Shown: positions 3,113 through 17,420 of the stretch, one piece after another
Layout of the letters: the number at the start of each line of letters is the position of its first letter
Position numbering within the stretch: position 1 is the first letter of the stretch
From: Actinomycetota bacterium
GTDB taxonomy: Bacteria; Actinomycetota; Thermoleophilia; Gaiellales; Gaiellaceae
Reading direction: 5' to 3'
Assembly (NCBI GenBank): GCA_013694685.1
Contig: JACDBY010000107.1
Span: 1 to 17,420 of the forward strand
Length of the DNA stretch: 17,420 bases
Program-made: the position numbers and the translations under genes
The notes under the pieces: model-generated
Databases searched by the model: none
Told to the model about the DNA's origin: nothing
What the model saw: only the letters and a program-made list of their open reading frames with translations

Positions 3113-3346
3113 ATGTCCAGCGTTCTCTTCTATGCGATGACGACCAGGACACCGATCGCCCCGAGCCGCGCCGAGCGAGAGCGTGACGGTGTCACGTCCT
3201 GGCGCGTCGAGCGACTCCTCGCGGCCGGCTACGACGCCGAGGCCGCTCTCGTGCTCGCGCTCGACCGGGACGTCGACCTGCACCGCGCGATCTCTCTCCT
3301 CGAGCGCGGTTGCCCGCCGGATACCGCCCTGCAGATCTTGTTTTGA
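3113..3346 (+). CDS. Small hypothetical protein, 77 residues, with an internal helical repeat
   Basis: No named family is recognised. The ATG at 3113 follows a weak GAGGG ribosome site about ten bases upstream; an in-frame ATG at 3137 is an alternative and would remove eight residues. After a basic, disordered-looking N-terminus (1-28) the rest is predicted helical. It contains two copies of L-L-x2-G-x5-A-L, at L35-L46 and L62-L73, exactly 27 residues apart, separated by an acidic DRDVDLHRAI linker. This resembles a small UBA-like or CUE-like three-helix bundle, possibly a protein-binding module, but that is inference. The TGA stop at 3344-3346 directly abuts the inverted repeat beginning at 3347. 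It lies 50 bases after the 98-residue gene on the same strand and could share its transcript. Confidence 0.75.
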   Translation: MSSVLFYAMTTRTPIAPSRAERERDGVTSWRVERLLAAGYDAEAALVLALDRDVDLHRAISLLERGCPPDTALQILF

Positions 3347-3455
3347 CGTAGGGGCCGGACCTGTCCGGCCCGCAGGTGCCGCGTACCGTTGCACGGTCCC
3401 AGGCCCGACGCTCGATGCCTCGACCCAGGAGGGTCGGACAGGTCCGGCCCCTACG
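3347..3455. repeat. Family A inverted repeat pair (REPIN-like) between convergent genes
   Basis: Two 25-base arms, 3347-3371 and 3431-3455, are inverted copies matching at 24 of 25 positions. Each arm is itself a small palindrome: the left arm has GGGCCGGAC, a two-base CT loop, then GTCCGGCCC. The arms start and end with CGTAGGGG and CCCCTACG. The 59-base spacer holds a minor ACCGT/ACGGT palindrome at 3385-3397. The element fills the gap between the convergent 77-residue gene (stop at 3346) and malQ (stop at 3490). Two inverted REP-type hairpins match the known REPIN arrangement, a non-autonomous repeat. A strong stem could also act as a bidirectional transcription barrier, but there is no T-tract. 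A related single hairpin lies at 16202-16231. Confidence 0.88.
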
Positions 3456-4679: not shown

Positions 4680-6476
4680 GTGCCCGCTGAGCGGATCTCC
4701 ATCTCCGAGGTCACACCACAGGTCGACTGCGGCCGCTGGCCCGCGAAGGCCTGCGTCGGTGACCGGGTCGAGGTGGGGGCGACGATCGTGCGCGACGGGC
4801 ACGAGGTCGTTCGTGCCGTGATCCGCTATCGGCGCGGTTCGGGACGCTGGCGCGAGGCTCCGCTCGTCGCCCTCGGATCCGATCGATACGCCGGCTCCTT
4901 CGTCGTCGACGCGGCGGGCCGCCACCGGTTCCAGCTCGAGGCATGGGTCGACAGGCACGTAGGCTGGCTCGACGAGCACGACCGGAAGGTCGCCGCGGGC
5001 CAAGCGGATCTCGCCGGGGAGCTCTCCGAGGGCGCCGCGCTCTTCGGCGTGGGTGCGATCGAGGACTGGCGCGGGGCCGCCGCCGCGCTCGGCGCGCGCG
5101 ATCGTCACGGCTCCGCCCGGAGCGCGCCGCTCGAGCTCGAGGTCGAGCGCGAGCTGGCGCGCTCGGGAGCGTGGTACGAGCTCTTCCCACGCTCCTGGGG
5201 CGGCTTCAAAGGCGTCACGCAGATCGTCCCGGAGCTCGCGGAGCTCGGCTTCGACGTCGTCTACTTCCCGCCGATCCATCCGATCGGGCGCACGAACCGC
5301 AAGGGCCGGAACAACACCGAGCAGGCCGAGCCCGGGGATGTCGGGAGTCCGTGGGCGATCGGCGGCCGCGAGGGCGGTCACGACGCGATCCACCCCGACC
5401 TGGGCGACAAGGCCGACCTCCGCGCGCTCGTCGCAGACCTGCACGAGCACGGCATGGAGCTCGCGCTCGACCTCGCGCTGCAGTGCTCGCCCGACCACCC
5501 CTGGCTCAGGGAGCACCCGGAGTGGTTCCAGCACCGCCCCGACGGCTCGCTGAAGTACGCGGAGAACCCTCCCAAGCGCTACCAGGACATCCACAACCTC
5601 GACTGGGACACCGAGGATCGCAAGGGTCTCTGGAAGGCGGTCCTCGAGGCCGTGCTGGGCTGGTGCGAGCTCGGCGTGACCGTGTTCCGTGTCGACAACC
5701 CCCACACGAAGCCGGTGCCGTTCTGGGAGTGGCTGATCGGCGAGGTGCGGAAGCGCCATCCGGAGACCGTCTTCCTCTCGGAGGCGTTCACGCGCCCGTC
5801 GATGATGACGCTGCTCGGCAAGGCGGGCTTCTCGCAGTCGTACACGTACTTCACGTGGAAGTCGACGAAGGGCGAGCTCGTCGAGCTCGTCGAGCAGCTC
5901 CGCTCGTGGTCGACCTACCTGCGACCCAACCTGTGGCCTAACACGCAGGACATCCTCCACGCGACGCTGCAGGAGGGCGGTCGGCCCGCATTCGAGTCGC
6001 GGCTCGTCCTCGCGGCGACGCTCTCGCCCAGCTACGGGATCTACTCCGGCTTCGAACGCTGCGAGAACGTCCCGCTGCGACCGGGGAGCGAGGAGTACCT
6101 CGACTCGGAGAAGTACGAGCTGAAGGAGCGGTCGCTCGACGGCATCCTCCTGCCGCTCGTCAAGCGCCTCAACGAGATCCGGCGTGCGCATCGCGCGCTC
6201 ACGGGTGCCGGGCTCGAGCGGCTTACGTGGCTCGAGACCGAGAGCGAGCACCTGCTCGCCTACGCGCGCGACCTCGACGACGACGTCGTGCTCTGCGTCT
6301 GCAACCTCGACCCGTACGCGATGCACGACGGCGTCTGCGTGATCCCGCCGTCTCTCGGGCTTCCCCAGACGTTCCAGGCGAGCGACGGGTTGACGGGCGA
6401 GAGCTACGAGTGGGGAAACCGGAATTACGTGCGCCTCGGGCCTGGCCAGTCGCACGTGCTGGAGATGGCCCGTTGA
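4680..6476 (+). CDS. glgE: Alpha-1,4-glucan:maltose-1-phosphate maltosyltransferase
   Basis: GH13 enzyme that adds maltosyl units from maltose 1-phosphate to alpha-1,4-glucan chains in the cytoplasm, the polymerising step of the GlgE pathway. Diagnostic segments are present: FPPIHPIGRTNRKGRNN, SPWAIGGREGGHDAIHPDLG, CSPDHPW and KYAENPPKRYQD. From this start the catalytic residues are D339 in FRVDNPHTKP, E368 in LSEAFTRP and D424 in NTQDILH, with spacing close to that of characterised GlgE. An N-terminal beta domain occupies about 1-160. The GTG at 4680 (598 residues) is chosen because homology begins just after it, a TACCGT box lies nine bases upstream, and the earlier GTG at 4635 (613 residues) would overlap the divergent malQ start. 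GlgE is often 650-700 residues, so this is a short version. The stop is four bases before a family B repeat. Confidence 0.96.
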   Translation: MPAERISISEVTPQVDCGRWPAKACVGDRVEVGATIVRDGHEVVRAVIRYRRGSGRWREAPLVALGSDRYAGSFVVDAAGRHRFQLEAWVDRHVGWLDEHDRKVAAGQADLAGELSEGAALFGVGAIEDWRGAAAALGARDRHGSARSAPLELEVERELARSGAWYELFPRSWGGFKGVTQIVPELAELGFDVVYFPPIHPIGRTNRKGRNNTEQAEPGDVGSPWAIGGREGGHDAIHPDLGDKADLRALVADLHEHGMELALDLALQCSPDHPWLREHPEWFQHRPDGSLKYAENPPKRYQDIHNLDWDTEDRKGLWKAVLEAVLGWCELGVTVFRVDNPHTKPVPFWEWLIGEVRKRHPETVFLSEAFTRPSMMTLLGKAGFSQSYTYFTWKSTKGELVELVEQLRSWSTYLRPNLWPNTQDILHATLQEGGRPAFESRLVLAATLSPSYGIYSGFERCENVPLRPGSEEYLDSEKYELKERSLDGILLPLVKRLNEIRRAHRALTGAGLERLTWLETESEHLLAYARDLDDDVVLCVCNLDPYAMHDGVCVIPPSLGLPQTFQASDGLTGESYEWGNRNYVRLGPGQSHVLEMAR

Positions 6477-6480
6477 TGCG

Positions 6481-6562
6481 GTGTCCGAGTTCTGTCGAAC
6501 ACGTGCTCTGTGCCGGCATCCGGGGAGGGATGAAGAGCACGTGTCGGACTGAGGCCCGACAC
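6481..6562. repeat. Family B inverted repeat pair between glgE and treS
   Basis: Two 28-base units, 6481-6508 and 6535-6562, are inverted copies matching at 21 of 28 positions. The inner ends are the perfect 9-base pair CACGTGCTC/GAGCACGTG, and the outer ends are GTGTC/GACAC. Each unit is itself an imperfect palindrome. The units are the same sequence as the pair at 11400-11462, but here the GAGCAC ends face inward while there they face outward. The element begins four bases after the glgE stop and fills most of the 115-base gap before treS. It could attenuate or process a glgE-treS transcript; there is no T-tract to make it a standard terminator. Confidence 0.82.
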
Positions 6563-6591
6563 GGGGCCGAATCCTGCTCGGCGGCAAAGGC

Positions 6592-9539: not shown

Positions 9540-11417
9540 ATGACCCGGCCGGGTGAGCTCGATCTCCACCTGATCGGCGAGGGTCGCCACGAGCGGCTCT
9601 GGGAGCAGCTCGGCGCCCATGTTCAGGACGAGGGCGGCGTCCGCTTCGCCGTCTGGGCGCCGAGCGCGCGACGGATCTCGGTCGTCGGCGACTGGAACGG
9701 CTGGGCCGAAGGCGCCGACCCGCTCAACCCGCAGGGCTCGTCCGGAGTCTGGGTTGGAACAGCAGGCGATGCCCGCGAGGGTCAGCCGTACAAGCTCTCG
9801 GTGCACGGGCACGACGGCGTCACGCGACTCAAGGCGGACCCGGTTGCGTTCCGCGCCGAGGTGCCGCCGAGCACCGCCTCGCTCGTCTACCGGTCACGTC
9901 ACGTCTGGGCGGACGCTGCGTGGATGGAGCGGCGCGAGCGGGCGGAGCCGCTCTCGGAGCCCCTCTCGATCTACGAGGTGCACCCTGGCTCGTGGCGCCG
10001 CGGACTCGGCTGGCGCGATCTCGCCGAGGAGCTCGCCGACCACGTCACCGAGCTCGGCTTCACGCATGTCGAGCTCCTGCCGGTGATGCAGCACCCCTAC
10101 GGCCCTTCGTGGGGCTACCAGGTGTCGGGCTTCTACGCACCGCAGTCGACCCTCGGCGAGCCGGACGACCTGCGGGCGTTCGTCGACCACATGCACGCCG
10201 CCGGGATCGGCGTCGTCCTCGACTGGGTGCCCGCCCACTTCGCCGTCGACGACTGGGCTTTGAGGCGCTTCGACGGAACCGCCCTCTACGAGCACGCCGA
10301 TCCACGGCGCGGCGCACATCCGGAGTGGGGGACGCTCGTCTTCAACTACGGGCGCCACGAGGTGCGCAACTTCCTCGTCGCGAACGCGCTCTACTGGCTC
10401 GAGGAGTTCCACGCCGACGGCCTCCGGGTCGACGGTGTCGCCTCGATGCTCTATCTCGACTACTCGCGCGCTCCCGGCGAGTGGGTGCCGAACCGCTACG
10501 GCGGCCGCGAGGACCTCGAGGCTGTCGGCTTCCTCCAGGAGCTGAACGCCGTCGTCCATGCGACGCATCCGGGCGTCTCGATGACCGCGGAGGAGTCGAC
10601 GGCCTGGCCCGGTGTCACGCGCTCGACGGAGAGCGGCGGCCTCGGCTTCACGTTCAAGTGGAACATGGGATGGATGCACGACACCCTCGGGTACGTCGCC
10701 CACGAACCCGTCCACCGCCGCTGGCACCACGATGCGCTGACGTTCTCCCTCGTCTACGCCTGGGACGTGAACTTCGTGCTCCCGCTCTCGCACGACGAGG
10801 TCGTGCACGGGAAAGCCTCGCTCCTGCGGAAGCTCCCCGGCGACGAGTGGCAGCAGTTCGCCTGCCTCCGCGCCCTCTACGGCCACATGTGGGCGCATCC
10901 GGGCAAGCAGCTCCTCTTCATGGGCGGCGAGCTCGGGCAGGGGACGGAGTGGTCGGAGGGGCGCGATCTCGACTGGTACGTGCTCGACTATCCGCTCCAT
11001 GAAGGTGTTCGCCGCTGCCTCGCCGATCTCAACCGTGCCTACCGGGCCGAGCGGGCGCTCTGGGAGGTCGATTTCCGCCCGGAGGGCTTCGAGTGGCTCG
11101 TCGGGGACGCGCGCGAGGACAACACGGTCGCGTTCCTGCGCCGCTCCGCGGACGGCGAGCGCTTGCTCGCGTGCCTCGTCAACTTCTCGCCCGTCGTACG
11201 CCACCACTGGCGCGTGCCGCTGCCGACGGGCGGCACCTGGCGCGAGGTGCTGAACACCGACGCCTCGGAGTACGGCGGCTCGGGTGTCGGGAACCTCGGC
11301 GGTGTCGAGGCGGTCGCCGAGCCGAGCCACGGCCGGCCCTTCTCGGCCGGGGTGACCCTGCCGCCGCTCGCAGCGGTGTGGCTCGCGCCCGAGGGCGACG
11401 AGCAGGTGTCCGACTGA
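9540..11417 (+). CDS. glgB: 1,4-alpha-glucan branching enzyme
   Basis: GH13 branching enzyme creating alpha-1,6 branch points in the glucan made by GlgE. A CBM48 domain starts almost at once (about 18-110: FAVWAPSARRISVVGDWNGW). The barrel carries nucleophile D298 in GLRVDGVASMLYLDY, acid/base E351 in MTAEES and transition-state D419 in LSHDEVVHGK. At 625 residues it is the short form lacking the extra N-terminal N1 domain of longer GlgB proteins. The ATG at 9540 has an AGAGG site seven bases upstream and lies 34 bases after the mak stop. The open frame continues upstream through mak, but that part is not coding. The C-terminus runs into a family B repeat: the last residues (about EQVSD) and the TGA at 11415-11417 lie inside the left palindrome, so the original end was probably a few codons different. 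Confidence 0.96.
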   Translation: MTRPGELDLHLIGEGRHERLWEQLGAHVQDEGGVRFAVWAPSARRISVVGDWNGWAEGADPLNPQGSSGVWVGTAGDAREGQPYKLSVHGHDGVTRLKADPVAFRAEVPPSTASLVYRSRHVWADAAWMERRERAEPLSEPLSIYEVHPGSWRRGLGWRDLAEELADHVTELGFTHVELLPVMQHPYGPSWGYQVSGFYAPQSTLGEPDDLRAFVDHMHAAGIGVVLDWVPAHFAVDDWALRRFDGTALYEHADPRRGAHPEWGTLVFNYGRHEVRNFLVANALYWLEEFHADGLRVDGVASMLYLDYSRAPGEWVPNRYGGREDLEAVGFLQELNAVVHATHPGVSMTAEESTAWPGVTRSTESGGLGFTFKWNMGWMHDTLGYVAHEPVHRRWHHDALTFSLVYAWDVNFVLPLSHDEVVHGKASLLRKLPGDEWQQFACLRALYGHMWAHPGKQLLFMGGELGQGTEWSEGRDLDWYVLDYPLHEGVRRCLADLNRAYRAERALWEVDFRPEGFEWLVGDAREDNTVAFLRRSADGERLLACLVNFSPVVRHHWRVPLPTGGTWREVLNTDASEYGGSGVGNLGGVEAVAEPSHGRPFSAGVTLPPLAAVWLAPEGDEQVSD

Positions 11418-11462
11418 AGTCGGACACACCCCCTGTGTCCCACTTCAATCGGACACGTGCTC
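11400..11462. repeat. Family B inverted repeat pair overlapping the glgB stop codon
   Basis: Units at 11400-11427 and 11435-11462 are 28-base inverted copies matching at 25 of 28 positions, separated by seven bases. The left unit contains a perfect 10-base palindrome, GTGTCCGACT and AGTCGGACAC around a GA loop (11406-11427). The right unit is the same with two mispairs. The GAGCAC-type ends face outward. The left unit contains the last codons and TGA of glgB. The element separates the GlgE-pathway genes from the ABC transporter operon and may work as a transcript end or stability structure; no T-tract follows. Confidence 0.9.
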
Positions 11463-11487
11463 TAGGCCCGTGCGCCAGCACTACGAC

Positions 11488-14091: not shown

Positions 14092-16206
14092 GTGACACGC
14101 ACAGTCTGGCCGGGCGTACCGTTCCCGCTCGGTCCGAGCTGGGACGGGCGCGGGACGAACTTCTCGCTCTTCAGCGAGAACGCCGAGCGTGTGGAGCTCT
14201 GCCTCTACGACGACGACGACACGGAGGAGCGCGTCCAGCTGCGTCACCAGACGGCGCACAACTGGCACGGCTACCTCCCGGACGTCCATCCAGGCCAGCG
14301 GTACGGCTACCGCGTCCACGGTCCGTGGGAGCCGGCCGCGGGTCGGCGCTTCAACCCCGCAAAGCTGCTGATCGACCCGTACGCGAAGGCGATCGAAGGC
14401 CCGATCCGGTTCGACCGGGCACGCGTCCTCGCCTACGCCCCCGAGGGAGAGGACGTCCGCGACAACTCGGACTCCGCACCCGCCATCCCGCGTTGCGTCG
14501 TGATCGACGAGTCGTTCGACTGGGAGGGAGACCTTCGGCTCGGCCGCCCGTGGGCCGAGACCGTCATCTACGAGCTCCACGTCAAGGGCTTTACGAAGCT
14601 GCTCCCGGGCGTGCGCGAGGACCTCCGCGGAACCTACGCCGGGCTTGCGTCGGAGGCAGCAATCGCCTACCTGCAGGAGCTCGGGGTGACGGCCGTCGAG
14701 CTGCTCCCCGTCCACCACATCGCCGACGAGCAATTCCTCGTCGAGCGAGGCCTGACAAACTACTGGGGATACTCGACGATCGGGTTCCTCGCGCCCCACG
14801 CCGGCTATGCCGCCACCGGAACGCGCGGCGAGCAGGTGCGTGAGTTCAAGGGCATGGTGAAGGCGCTCCACCAGGCCGGTCTCGAGGTGATCCTCGACGT
14901 TGTCTACAACCACACCGCCGAGGGCAACCACCTGGGGCCGACGCTCGGCTTCAGAGGCGTCGACAACGCCGCCTACTACCGTCTCGTTCCCGGCGACGAG
15001 CGGCACTACATCGACTTCAGCGGCACCGGCAACTCGTTGAACCCGGTCAACCCGTCGGTGCTGCGCCTGATCATGGACTCGCTCCGGTACTTCGTGATCG
15101 AGTGCCACGTCGACGGCTTCCGCTTCGACCTCGCCTCGGCGCTCGCGCGCGAGTTCTACGACGTCGACCGGCTCTCCGCCTTCTTCGACGTGATCCACCA
15201 GGACCCCGTGCTCTCGCAGGTGAAGCTCATCGCGGAGCCGTGGGACGTCGGGCCGGGTGGTTACCAGGTCGGGAACTTCCCGATCCTGTGGTCGGAGTGG
15301 AACGGGATGTATCGCGACACGATGCGCGACTTCTGGCGCGGCCACACGGCCGTCGCGGAGTTCGCGCGGCGGTTCACCGGCTCGAGCGACCTCTACCAGG
15401 CCGACGGCCGCCACCCGGCCGCCTCGATCAACTTCATCACCTGCCACGACGGCTTCACGCTGCGCGACCTCGTCTCGTACGACCGGAAGCACAACGAGGC
15501 GAACCGGGAAGGAAACCGGGACGGGACGGACGACAACCGCTCGTGGAACTGCGGCATCGAGGGCGAGACCTCGGATCCGGAGGTGAACGCGCTCCGCGAC
15601 CGGCAGACCCGGAACCTGCTCGTAACCCTCCTCCTCTCGCAGGGGACACCCATGCTCCTCGCGGGCGACGAACGCCGGAACTCACAGGGCGGGAACAACA
15701 ACGTCTACTGCCAGGACAACGAGCTCGGGTGGCTCGACTGGGGGAAGGGTGAGCGCGACGAGGCCTTCTTCGCGTTCACGAAGCGGGTCGCCCGGCTCCG
15801 TGCAGAGCATCCCGTGTTCCGGCGCTCCGCCTTCCTGAGCGGCGAGACCCGCCAAGGCTCGGGGGCGCCCGACGTCTGGTGGTTCCGGCCCGACGGCCGC
15901 CGGATGACGCAGTCGGACTGGAGCCGAGGCGATGCGCTCGCCCTCGGTGCGTTCCTGAACGGTGCGGAGATCCCGACCCCGACGACCGAAGGCGAGCCGA
16001 TCGTCGACGACTCGTTCATCGTCCTCTTCAACGCCTGGCGCGAGCCGGTGACGTTCACGCTCCCCCCCGTCCGGTTCGGGCGTAGGTGGGCGACCGAGCT
16101 CTCGACCGCGGAGCCCGAGCTCCCGCCGAACGGGGCGACCCTGGCGGCCCGCGCCACCGTGACCGTCGTCGCTCGCGCGCTACGCATCCTGCGCCGCGTC
16201 GCGTAG
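14092..16206 (+). CDS. glgX: Glycogen debranching enzyme (GlgX/isoamylase type)
   Basis: GH13 enzyme hydrolysing alpha-1,6 branches of glycogen or limit dextrins, releasing short chains that MalQ can rework. An N-terminal CBM48 domain (about 8-115) begins PFPLGPSWDGRGTNFSLFSENA and contains GYRVHGPW and FNPAKLLIDPYAK, both typical of this group. The barrel shows nucleophile D346 in HVDGFRFDLAS, acid/base E382 in LIAEPWDVGPGGYQVGNFP and transition-state D453 in ITCHDGFTLRDLVSY, followed by KHNEANREGNRDGTDDNRSWNCG. Length is 704 residues, normal for the family. The GTG at 14092 lacks a clear ribosome site but follows a TAGGGT box. The TAG stop (16204-16206) lies inside the left arm of a palindromic family A repeat. 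It is separate from glgE-glgB, with the ABC operon between. Confidence 0.96.
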   Translation: MTRTVWPGVPFPLGPSWDGRGTNFSLFSENAERVELCLYDDDDTEERVQLRHQTAHNWHGYLPDVHPGQRYGYRVHGPWEPAAGRRFNPAKLLIDPYAKAIEGPIRFDRARVLAYAPEGEDVRDNSDSAPAIPRCVVIDESFDWEGDLRLGRPWAETVIYELHVKGFTKLLPGVREDLRGTYAGLASEAAIAYLQELGVTAVELLPVHHIADEQFLVERGLTNYWGYSTIGFLAPHAGYAATGTRGEQVREFKGMVKALHQAGLEVILDVVYNHTAEGNHLGPTLGFRGVDNAAYYRLVPGDERHYIDFSGTGNSLNPVNPSVLRLIMDSLRYFVIECHVDGFRFDLASALAREFYDVDRLSAFFDVIHQDPVLSQVKLIAEPWDVGPGGYQVGNFPILWSEWNGMYRDTMRDFWRGHTAVAEFARRFTGSSDLYQADGRHPAASINFITCHDGFTLRDLVSYDRKHNEANREGNRDGTDDNRSWNCGIEGETSDPEVNALRDRQTRNLLVTLLLSQGTPMLLAGDERRNSQGGNNNVYCQDNELGWLDWGKGERDEAFFAFTKRVARLRAEHPVFRRSAFLSGETRQGSGAPDVWWFRPDGRRMTQSDWSRGDALALGAFLNGAEIPTPTTEGEPIVDDSFIVLFNAWREPVTFTLPPVRFGRRWATELSTAEPELPPNGATLAARATVTVVARALRILRRVA

Positions 16207-16231
16207 GGCCGGGACCCGTCCGGCCCCTACG
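16202..16231. repeat. Family A palindrome shared by the 3' ends of two convergent genes
   Basis: A single hairpin: CGTAGGG (16202-16208) pairs with CCCTACG (16225-16231), then CCGG (16209-16212) pairs with CCGG (16220-16223) past a bulged C24, leaving a loop of about seven bases. It is the same sequence family as the arms at 3347-3455. The left arm contains the TAG of glgX (16204-16206), and the right arm, read on the minus strand, contains the TAG of the HD-GYP gene (16227-16229). It may act as a bidirectional transcription barrier, though there is no T-tract. Confidence 0.85.
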
Positions 16232-17420
16232 GCTCGGCGATCGGCCCGCGGCCGAACACGCCGAGGCACGCGGCCACGACGCGGGGGTCGAACTGCGTGC
16301 CCGAGGCCTCCCGCAGGCGCCGAAGCGCCTCGTCGGGTTGGAGCGCGCTGCGATAGGGACGGTCGCTCGTCATCGCATGGTAGGCGTCGCAGGCGAAGAT
16401 GATGCGCGCCTCGAGGGGGATCTCGTCGCCGGCGAGCCCGTCGGGGTAGCCGCGGCCGTCGTATCGCTCGTGACACGCCCGGACGATCGGGCGGACGTCG
16501 GCGAGCTGCTCGATCGGCGCGAGGATGCGCTCGCCGAGCTCGGGGTGACGCTCGATCACCGCGCGCTCGTCGGCGGTCAGCGGACCCGCCTTCATGAGGA
16601 TCGAGGCGGGGATCCCGATCTTGCCGATGTCGTGAAAGAGCGCCCCGAGCTCGATCCGCTTCAGCTCGGCGGCATCGAGGCCGAGCTCCGCGCCGACCCG
16701 GAGGGAGAGATCGCGAATCCACCTGGCATGCGACGAGGTGTACTCGTCCTTCGTCTCGAGCGCGTTCGCAAGCGCTTCGACCGTGGCGAGGAAGGTCCGC
16801 TCGAGCCCCTCGAACGAGAGCGCGTTCGTGACCGCGAGCCGCGCCTGTGCGGCGATGCCGGTGAGGAGCTCGCGGCGGCGCTCGTCCAGTGGGTCGGCCG
16901 AGTCGAGCTCGACGGCGATGGCCCCGGCAGCGCTCGCAACCGGGAAGGCGACCACGACCGCCACATCGCAGATCGCCTCGTCGACGACGCCCTCCACGTG
17001 TTGGGAGAGCTCCTCGCGCGTGAGCAGGAACGGTCCGTTCGACGCCGCGAGCATGTGAGCCAAGGCCTCGGGCAGGACGTCACCCGCCTTCCAGTACGGC
17101 ACGGTCGGATCGGCCTGCCAGGTCGCGGAGCACGCGATGAGGCCCGTCCCACCGACCGGCATCCACATCGAGGCGCGTCGCGCATGCATGATCCTCGCCG
17201 CGCCGGCCGCGATCCGCGTCGCAACCGACTCGAGCTCGGTGCTGGCGGAGAGCTCCGTCGCGAGCTCGAGCAACGCCTTCGCGCTCTCGGTCTCGCGACG
17301 CTGCTGCTCGTACAGCCGCGCGTTCACGAGCGCCACGGACGCGTGGCCTGCGAGCACCTCGAGCAGGCGCAGCTCGTCCTGGTCGAACCGGTGGAGACCG
17401 AGTTTCGAGACGACGATCAC
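16227..17420 (-). CDS. GAF and HD-GYP domain cyclic-di-GMP phosphodiesterase (N-terminus cut by window)
   Basis: The last 397 residues of a signalling protein; the gene continues beyond 17420, and the GTG at the edge is an internal Val, because the first visible residues are the tail of a GAF domain (KLGLHRFDQDELRLLEVLAGHASVALVNARLY). A helical linker (about 36-55) leads to a second GAF-like domain (about 56-202) and then a complete HD-GYP domain (about 208-390). Its metal and catalytic residues are present: H231, the HD pair 263-264 in LFHDIGKIGIP, H292, H317 in CHERYDGRGYPDGLAGDEIP, and D345 in DAYHAMTSDRPYR. HD-GYP proteins hydrolyse c-di-GMP to pGpG or GMP, with GAF domains sensing a ligand or redox state. 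No transmembrane helix is visible in this part. The TAG stop lies in the shared hairpin with glgX. Confidence 0.93.
   Translation of the reverse strand: MIVVSKLGLHRFDQDELRLLEVLAGHASVALVNARLYEQQRRETESAKALLELATELSASTELESVATRIAAGAARIMHARRASMWMPVGGTGLIACSATWQADPTVPYWKAGDVLPEALAHMLAASNGPFLLTREELSQHVEGVVDEAICDVAVVVAFPVASAAGAIAVELDSADPLDERRRELLTGIAAQARLAVTNALSFEGLERTFLATVEALANALETKDEYTSSHARWIRDLSLRVGAELGLDAAELKRIELGALFHDIGKIGIPASILMKAGPLTADERAVIERHPELGERILAPIEQLADVRPIVRACHERYDGRGYPDGLAGDEIPLEARIIFACDAYHAMTSDRPYRSALQPDEALRRLREASGTQFDPRVVAACLGVFGRGPIAEP

What the first reader, a model, noticed from the sequence alone, without database searches (positions are those of the whole stretch)
16202..16231. 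One palindromic repeat supplies the stop codons of two convergent genes
The hairpin CGTAGGG...CCCTACG carries a TAG in each arm. glgX ends at the TAG in the left arm (16204-16206) and the HD-GYP gene ends, on the opposite strand, at the TAG in the right arm (16227-16229). Two unrelated genes therefore stop 24 bases apart inside one mobile-type palindrome. A repeat that brings stop codons on both strands could insert at gene ends with little harm, or even be selected as a combined translation stop and transcription barrier. That role is inference; the overlap itself is read directly.
Basis: seen in the sequence. Interest (0 to 1): 0.72.

Follow-up and report, generated by a model that had tools for sequence, protein, structure and literature searches.

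The report
GTAG repeat overlying two stop codons
A small repeated DNA hairpin whose ends spell the stop signal TAG sits exactly where two facing genes finish in this bacterium; the genes already ended there before it arrived, and repeats of this kind are known from other bacteria.

Summary
In detail: glgX ends at TAG 16204-16206 and the HD-GYP gene, on the other strand, at TAG 16227-16229, both inside one palindrome. The palindrome is a 'double-foot' copy of a dispersed REP element, CGTAGGGGCCGGACCTGTCCGGCCC: a one-sided GTAG foot plus a hairpin. A RAYT transposase flanked by this REP, and ending at its TAG, lies in ACT1, a genome of the same family. The overlap recurs: of 41 fetched copies whose foot faces a gene end, 22 have the gene stopping exactly at the foot TAG and none is read through in another frame; classified loci are 28 convergent, 25 tandem, 1 divergent. 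But the repeat did not create these gene ends: in the REP-free congener G045, 21 of 29 orthologues end within one residue of the same place, like genes without a REP (103 of 131). That GTAG REPs often provide TAG stops is in print (PMC3733652), as are double-foot REPs (PMC6006769). Added here: a family in the class Thermoleophilia and an empty-site comparison. A role as transcription barrier is untested; the terminator scan lists nothing here.

The parts
16202..16231 (.). double-foot REP copy, CGTAGGGCCGGGACCCGTCCGGCCCCTACG
16204..16206 (+). TAG stop of glgX in the left foot
16227..16229 (-). TAG stop of the HD-GYP gene in the right foot
14092..16206 (+). glgX, glycogen debranching protein, 704 aa
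   Evidence: TIGR02100 over its cut-off
16227..17420 (-). GAF/HD-GYP-type gene, 397 aa in the window, 5' end beyond it
3347..3371 (+). consensus REP directly after the TGA at 3344-3346
3431..3455 (-). inverted partner REP (1 core mismatch) forming a REPIN-like pair with 3347-3371

Best explanation
The palindrome is a copy of a GTAG-type REP element, a tiny non-autonomous repeat most likely copied by a RAYT (Y1 transposase). Its 5' foot is (C)GTAG, so a gene whose frame runs into the foot in the right register stops at its TAG. Copies are kept where they do no harm: beyond a stop, or with the foot TAG in frame at the very end of a coding sequence. The glgX/HD-GYP copy has a foot at each end (double foot, perhaps an inverted REP pair that lost its middle), so it fits the ends of two convergent genes. 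Shown: the repeat family, its one-sided GTAG, its position at gene ends, its absence from six congeners, a RAYT flanked by it in ACT1, and that the gene ends predate it. Inferred: that a RAYT moved this copy, that selection rather than target choice placed it, and the origin of the double foot.
For: 45 exact copies against 2 control. GTAG exactly at one end in 60 of 84 core copies, both ends 1, neither 23. 22 of 41 stop-facing copies (foot at least 4 of 5 bases) have the gene stopping at the foot TAG, 0 read through out of frame; 21 of 39 touch the stop against 5.2 expected for uniform placement in the spacer; 28 convergent, 25 tandem, 1 divergent loci against 12, 71, 12 spacers in 20 comparison contigs. 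Exact 15-mer in 2 of 103 family genomes (own and G061), in 0 of 6 congeners. G045 orthologues end within one residue in 21 of 29. ACT1 RAYT between REPs, ending at the TAG of the downstream one. A perfect double-foot copy in ACT1 ends two convergent genes.
Against: No RAYT with this REP was found in the window's own genome: the two PF01797 hits are not flanked by it, tblastn of the fetched own contigs found no close one, and the whole genome was not searched in the right frame. In ACT1 only 3 of 12 stop-facing copies use the foot TAG. Exact residue matches to G045 are somewhat rarer with a REP (13 of 29 against 86 of 131, p 0.056). Gene ends come from my own gene caller; at least two of the 22 calls (L088, L094) are weak.
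Confidence: 0.8

Rival explanations
1. Target-site insertion: the RAYT joins REPs at TAG or GTAG, and stop codons are natural safe sites, so the TAG was there first.
For: G045 orthologues of REP-terminated genes end in TAG in 14 of 29, against 31 of 131 genes without REP (p 0.012) and near the 14 of 37 for non-REP genes that use TAG here (p 0.46). G041 HD-GYP already ends in CGTAG. Copies fit into gaps that are only 2-4 nt in G045 (L095, L114, L101).
Against: 14 of 29 G045 orthologues end in TGA. The foot is GTAG also at copies not used as a stop, so it travels with the repeat.
Confidence: 0.2
2. The hairpin is kept as a bidirectional transcription terminator or barrier at convergent gene ends.
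For: Loci are convergent or tandem, almost never divergent. REP-free G045 has three unrelated TAG-hairpin-CTA junctions among 54 convergent pairs.
Against: No T-run; the scan lists no terminator there. Three of 54 was not tested against chance. Position alone is also explained by harmless insertion.
Confidence: 0.2
3. A chance GC-rich hairpin unrelated to any repeat.
For: The window copy has 2 core mismatches and its fold is unexceptional in context.
Against: Dispersed near-identical copies against near-zero controls.
Confidence: 0.03

Closest known systems
GTAG REP super-family (Di Nocera et al. 2013, PMC3733652; passages and section 15 seen)
   Same: GTAG at one end of a short hairpin, inverted dimers, next to 3' ends of convergent and tandem genes, termini that often provide the TAG stop
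   Different: That paper names Proteobacteria, Cyanobacteria, Chloroflexi and PVC for GTAG repeats in the passages seen and never uses the word Actinobacteria; this family is in Thermoleophilia (Actinomycetota)
Double-foot REPs and REPs inside tnpAREP genes, subclass 2.4 (Quentin et al. 2018, PMC6006769; passages seen)
   Same: Foot at both ends, as here and in L046; REP inserted in frame inside the RAYT, as in L055
   Different: Subclass of the ACT1 RAYT was not tested by phylogeny
REP/RAYT pairs and REPINs (Nunvar et al. 2010, PMC2817692; Bertels and Rainey 2011, PMC3116915; passages seen)
   Same: Y1 transposase gene between REPs, REP directly after the rayt stop, inverted doublets
   Different: Those passages concern Proteobacteria; no mobility data here
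E. coli REPs within 15 nt of a stop that lower translation (as reported in RepRanger paper PMC12306157, passages)
   Same: Hairpin immediately after or over the stop codon
   Different: Here the stop is part of the REP; no expression data

Membership tests
GTAG REP | GTAG tetranucleotide at one end only | tested here: met
   one end 60, both 1, neither 23 of 84; the window copy itself has it at both ends
GTAG REP | short palindrome able to form a hairpin | tested here: met
   consensus -15.9 kcal/mol, z -2.9
GTAG REP | many dispersed copies | tested here: met
   45 exact; 84 core copies in fetched stretches
GTAG REP | extragenic, mostly downstream of genes | tested here: met
   54 classified loci: 28 convergent, 25 tandem, 1 divergent; 1 inside a gene, 8 at contig ends
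GTAG REP | inverted pairs (REPIN/BIME) | tested here: met
   window 3347-3455; L091, L087
GTAG REP | cognate RAYT flanked by the same REP | tested here: met
   in ACT1 L055; not found in the window's own genome, where the search was incomplete
GTAG REP | mobility by the RAYT | not testable with these tools
   indirect only: absent from 6 congeners
Double-foot REP | GT[AG]G at one end and C[TC]AC at the other | tested here: met
   window 16202-16231; L046
Intrinsic terminator | hairpin followed by a T-run | tested here: not met
   one search lists 2 sites in the window, neither here
MITE with TA target duplication | TA on both flanks | tested here: not met
   TA conserved on the foot side only

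The most novel reading that the evidence does not exclude
GTAG REPs are aimed at stop codons: the RAYT joins REPs at TAG, so each insertion rebuilds the stop it lands on and is harmless by design; at convergent genes with touching stops one double-foot copy rebuilds both.
Probability: 0.15. Interest if true: 0.65.

Novelty: new member of a known kind. Interest (0 to 1): 0.32.

Why it matters
It shows how a small repeat can spread in a compact genome without damage: its foot carries a stop codon and copies are found at gene ends that already existed. It extends GTAG REP/RAYT systems to Thermoleophilia and gives a set of empty sites in a close REP-free relative, which makes 'targeting or selection?' a testable question.

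Tried and rejected
Terminator scan: nothing at the site. RAYT by PF01797 in the own genome (2 hits) and 7 relatives (9 hits in 6 of them): none of the 11 loci has this REP flanking the RAYT at up to 4 core mismatches (L031 and L032 hold matches of 4 mismatches elsewhere). PF01797 had missed the ACT1 RAYT, which scores 16.8 bits against a cut-off of 23. TA-duplication MITE rejected. In one search, of 40 selected gene ends 6 had no G045 hit and 3 rows (#3, #6, #8) were set aside because the reading ran past the gene; one search repeated the test with reciprocal best hits. The listing was cut at 100 rows, so some copies with 2-3 mismatches were not fetched. The 20 comparison contigs were picked mostly by number, but I had already seen copies in two (C1, C72), and four of the 20 hold diverged copies. 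In ACT1 a longer composite begins near a TAG that is the upstream stop in 4 of 8 rows; not pursued. Paper searches: REPIN + RAYT + Actinobacteria 0 papers; Thermoleophilia + palindromic repeats 2, off-topic by listing; these and searches cover an open-access library only.

Full report
Observation. The window reads as described: glgX (14092-16206, +) and an HD-GYP-type gene (16227 to the window end, -) stop on TAGs at the two ends of CGTAGGGCCGGGACCCGTCCGGCCCCTACG (families).

The repeat. CGTAGGGGCCGG occurs 45 times exactly in the 2,558,738-base assembly (86.7% complete, 4.6% contamination; 26 + 19 against a control of 1 + 1). Many copies read CGTAGGGGCCGGACCTGTCCGGCCC. In 69 fetched stretches (487,474 bases, most chosen because they hold copies) there are 84 core copies with up to 3 mismatches; GTAG stands exactly at one end in 60, at both in 1, at neither in 23. 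In 70 copies with a clear orientation the foot bases G, T, A, G are kept in 61, 59, 57 and 62, and the preceding C in 49; the other end shows no such motif. This is the anatomy of a GTAG REP. Inverted pairs exist, one in the window at 3347-3455.

Position relative to genes. With a codon-based gene caller of my own, 67 of the 84 copies have at least 4 of 5 foot bases; in 22 the facing gene stops exactly at the foot TAG, in 19 it stops elsewhere, 17 face a start, 5 face no gene and 4 lie inside called genes. At least two of the 22 calls (L088, L094) are weak. Of the 41 stop-facing copies none is read through the foot in another frame. Uniform placement in the spacer would put 5.2 of 39 usable copies at the stop; 21 are there. 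Of 63 loci, 28 are convergent, 25 tandem, 1 divergent, 1 inside a gene and 8 at contig ends, against 12, 71 and 12 spacers in 20 comparison contigs. Five single hairpins end both flanking genes: the window copy, L095, L105, L108 and L114; a more diverged one is L119.

Did the repeat make the stops? The exact 15-mer CGTAGGGGCCGGACC is in 2 of 103 family genomes (own and G061) and in 0 of 6 congeners. Six of the seven same-genus genomes, own included, gave a glgX match. I read five other glgX ends (G041, G043, G044, G045, G046); in three of them (G041, G044, G045) the HD-GYP gene follows convergently, without the palindrome. glgX ends at the same residue in G045 (TAG), G041 (TGA) and G044 (TGA). 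HD-GYP has the same length in G045 (TGA) and is 3 residues shorter in G041 (TAG, in CGTAG) and 5 in G044 (TAA). Over 160 reciprocal best pairs with G045, REP-terminated proteins end at the same residue in 13 of 29 and within one in 21 of 29; proteins without a REP in 86 and 103 of 131 (p 0.056 and 0.47). So the gene ends are mostly older than the repeat. The G045 stop is TAG in 14 of 29 REP-terminated genes, in 31 of 131 others, and in 14 of 37 others that use TAG here. This leans towards pre-existing TAGs but does not settle it, since another 14 of the 29 are TGA.

The transposase. ACT1 is named Thermoleophilia bacterium in its record; its hit coordinates on contig 67 agree with those of G061, so I take them as one genome. 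Thermoleophilia is a class of Actinomycetota. ACT1 locus L055 encodes a 152-aa protein with 490 relatives at E 0.001 or less, many of the 120 listed being named RayT or putative transposase or bearing PF01797; the protein itself scores below the PF01797 cut-off. All 12 aligned sequences keep H75, H77 and Y134; that these are the HuH and Y1 residues is recalled. One REP lies upstream (foot at 5762), one inside the gene, in frame and inverted (core at 6123), one downstream (foot at 6327) whose TAG is the RAYT's own stop. In G036 a 43% identical RAYT (reading NYVH where the others read NHVH) has the same layout with another stem, CGTAGGGGCGAGGCTTGCCTCGCCC; the foot TAG ends the RAYT and, read by eye, the gene before it. 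ACT1 also has a perfect double-foot copy ending two convergent genes of 368 and 233 aa (L046). Against generality, only 3 of 12 stop-facing ACT1 copies use the foot TAG.

Mechanism. Most likely a RAYT-mobilised REP whose foot contains TAG. Copies survive where the foot TAG is in frame at a gene end or lies past a stop. Whether the RAYT prefers TAG or selection sorts insertions is open. A terminator role is possible but unshown, and REP-free G045 has its own unrelated TAG-hairpin-CTA junctions, 3 of 54 convergent pairs.

Known or new. Di Nocera et al. 2013 (PMC3733652; passages and section 15) state that GTAG REP termini often provide the TAG stop and that REPs lie next to the 3' ends of convergent genes. 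Quentin et al. 2018 (PMC6006769; passages) describe double-foot REPs, a possible origin by central deletion of an inverted dimer, and REPs inside RAYT genes. Nunvar et al. 2010 (PMC2817692; passages) note REPs directly after rayt stops. The finding is a new member of a known kind; the class Thermoleophilia and the empty-site comparison are the additions.

Noticed in passing
window 11406-11427: A second dispersed palindrome, GTGTCCGACTGAAGTCGGACAC, holds the TGA stop (11415-11417) of the 9540-11417 branching-enzyme-like ORF in its centre. Up to 2 mismatches: 90 places in the own genome, 90 in G045, 21 in G046, 1 in G044, 0 in G041-G043. A called gene stops at that TGA in 3 of 25 own and 4 of 10 G045 copies examined.
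   Followed up: partly
window 6534-6566 and 11431-11463: Inverted relatives of that second palindrome, 79% complementary, in gaps of the glycogen/trehalose gene cluster.
   Followed up: no
L063, L081, L086, L106, L120: A related REP-like family with stem GTGCCGGACCTGTCCGGCAC and a GTAG-like head, often with a longer conserved flank.
   Followed up: no
L032 about 1130-1330 and 1970-2100: A RAYT-like remnant flanked by other GC-rich repeats of GGGGACTGGCCCC type.
   Followed up: no
L050, L051, L053, L056 (ACT1): Longer composite repeats containing the REP begin near a TAG that is the stop of the upstream gene, in 4 of 8 rows.
   Followed up: partly
L253 1401-1970 (G036) and L055 5762-6355 (ACT1): Two diverged RAYT genes share the same layout, REP before, inside and after the gene, with different REP stems, as if repeat and transposase changed together.
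   Followed up: partly
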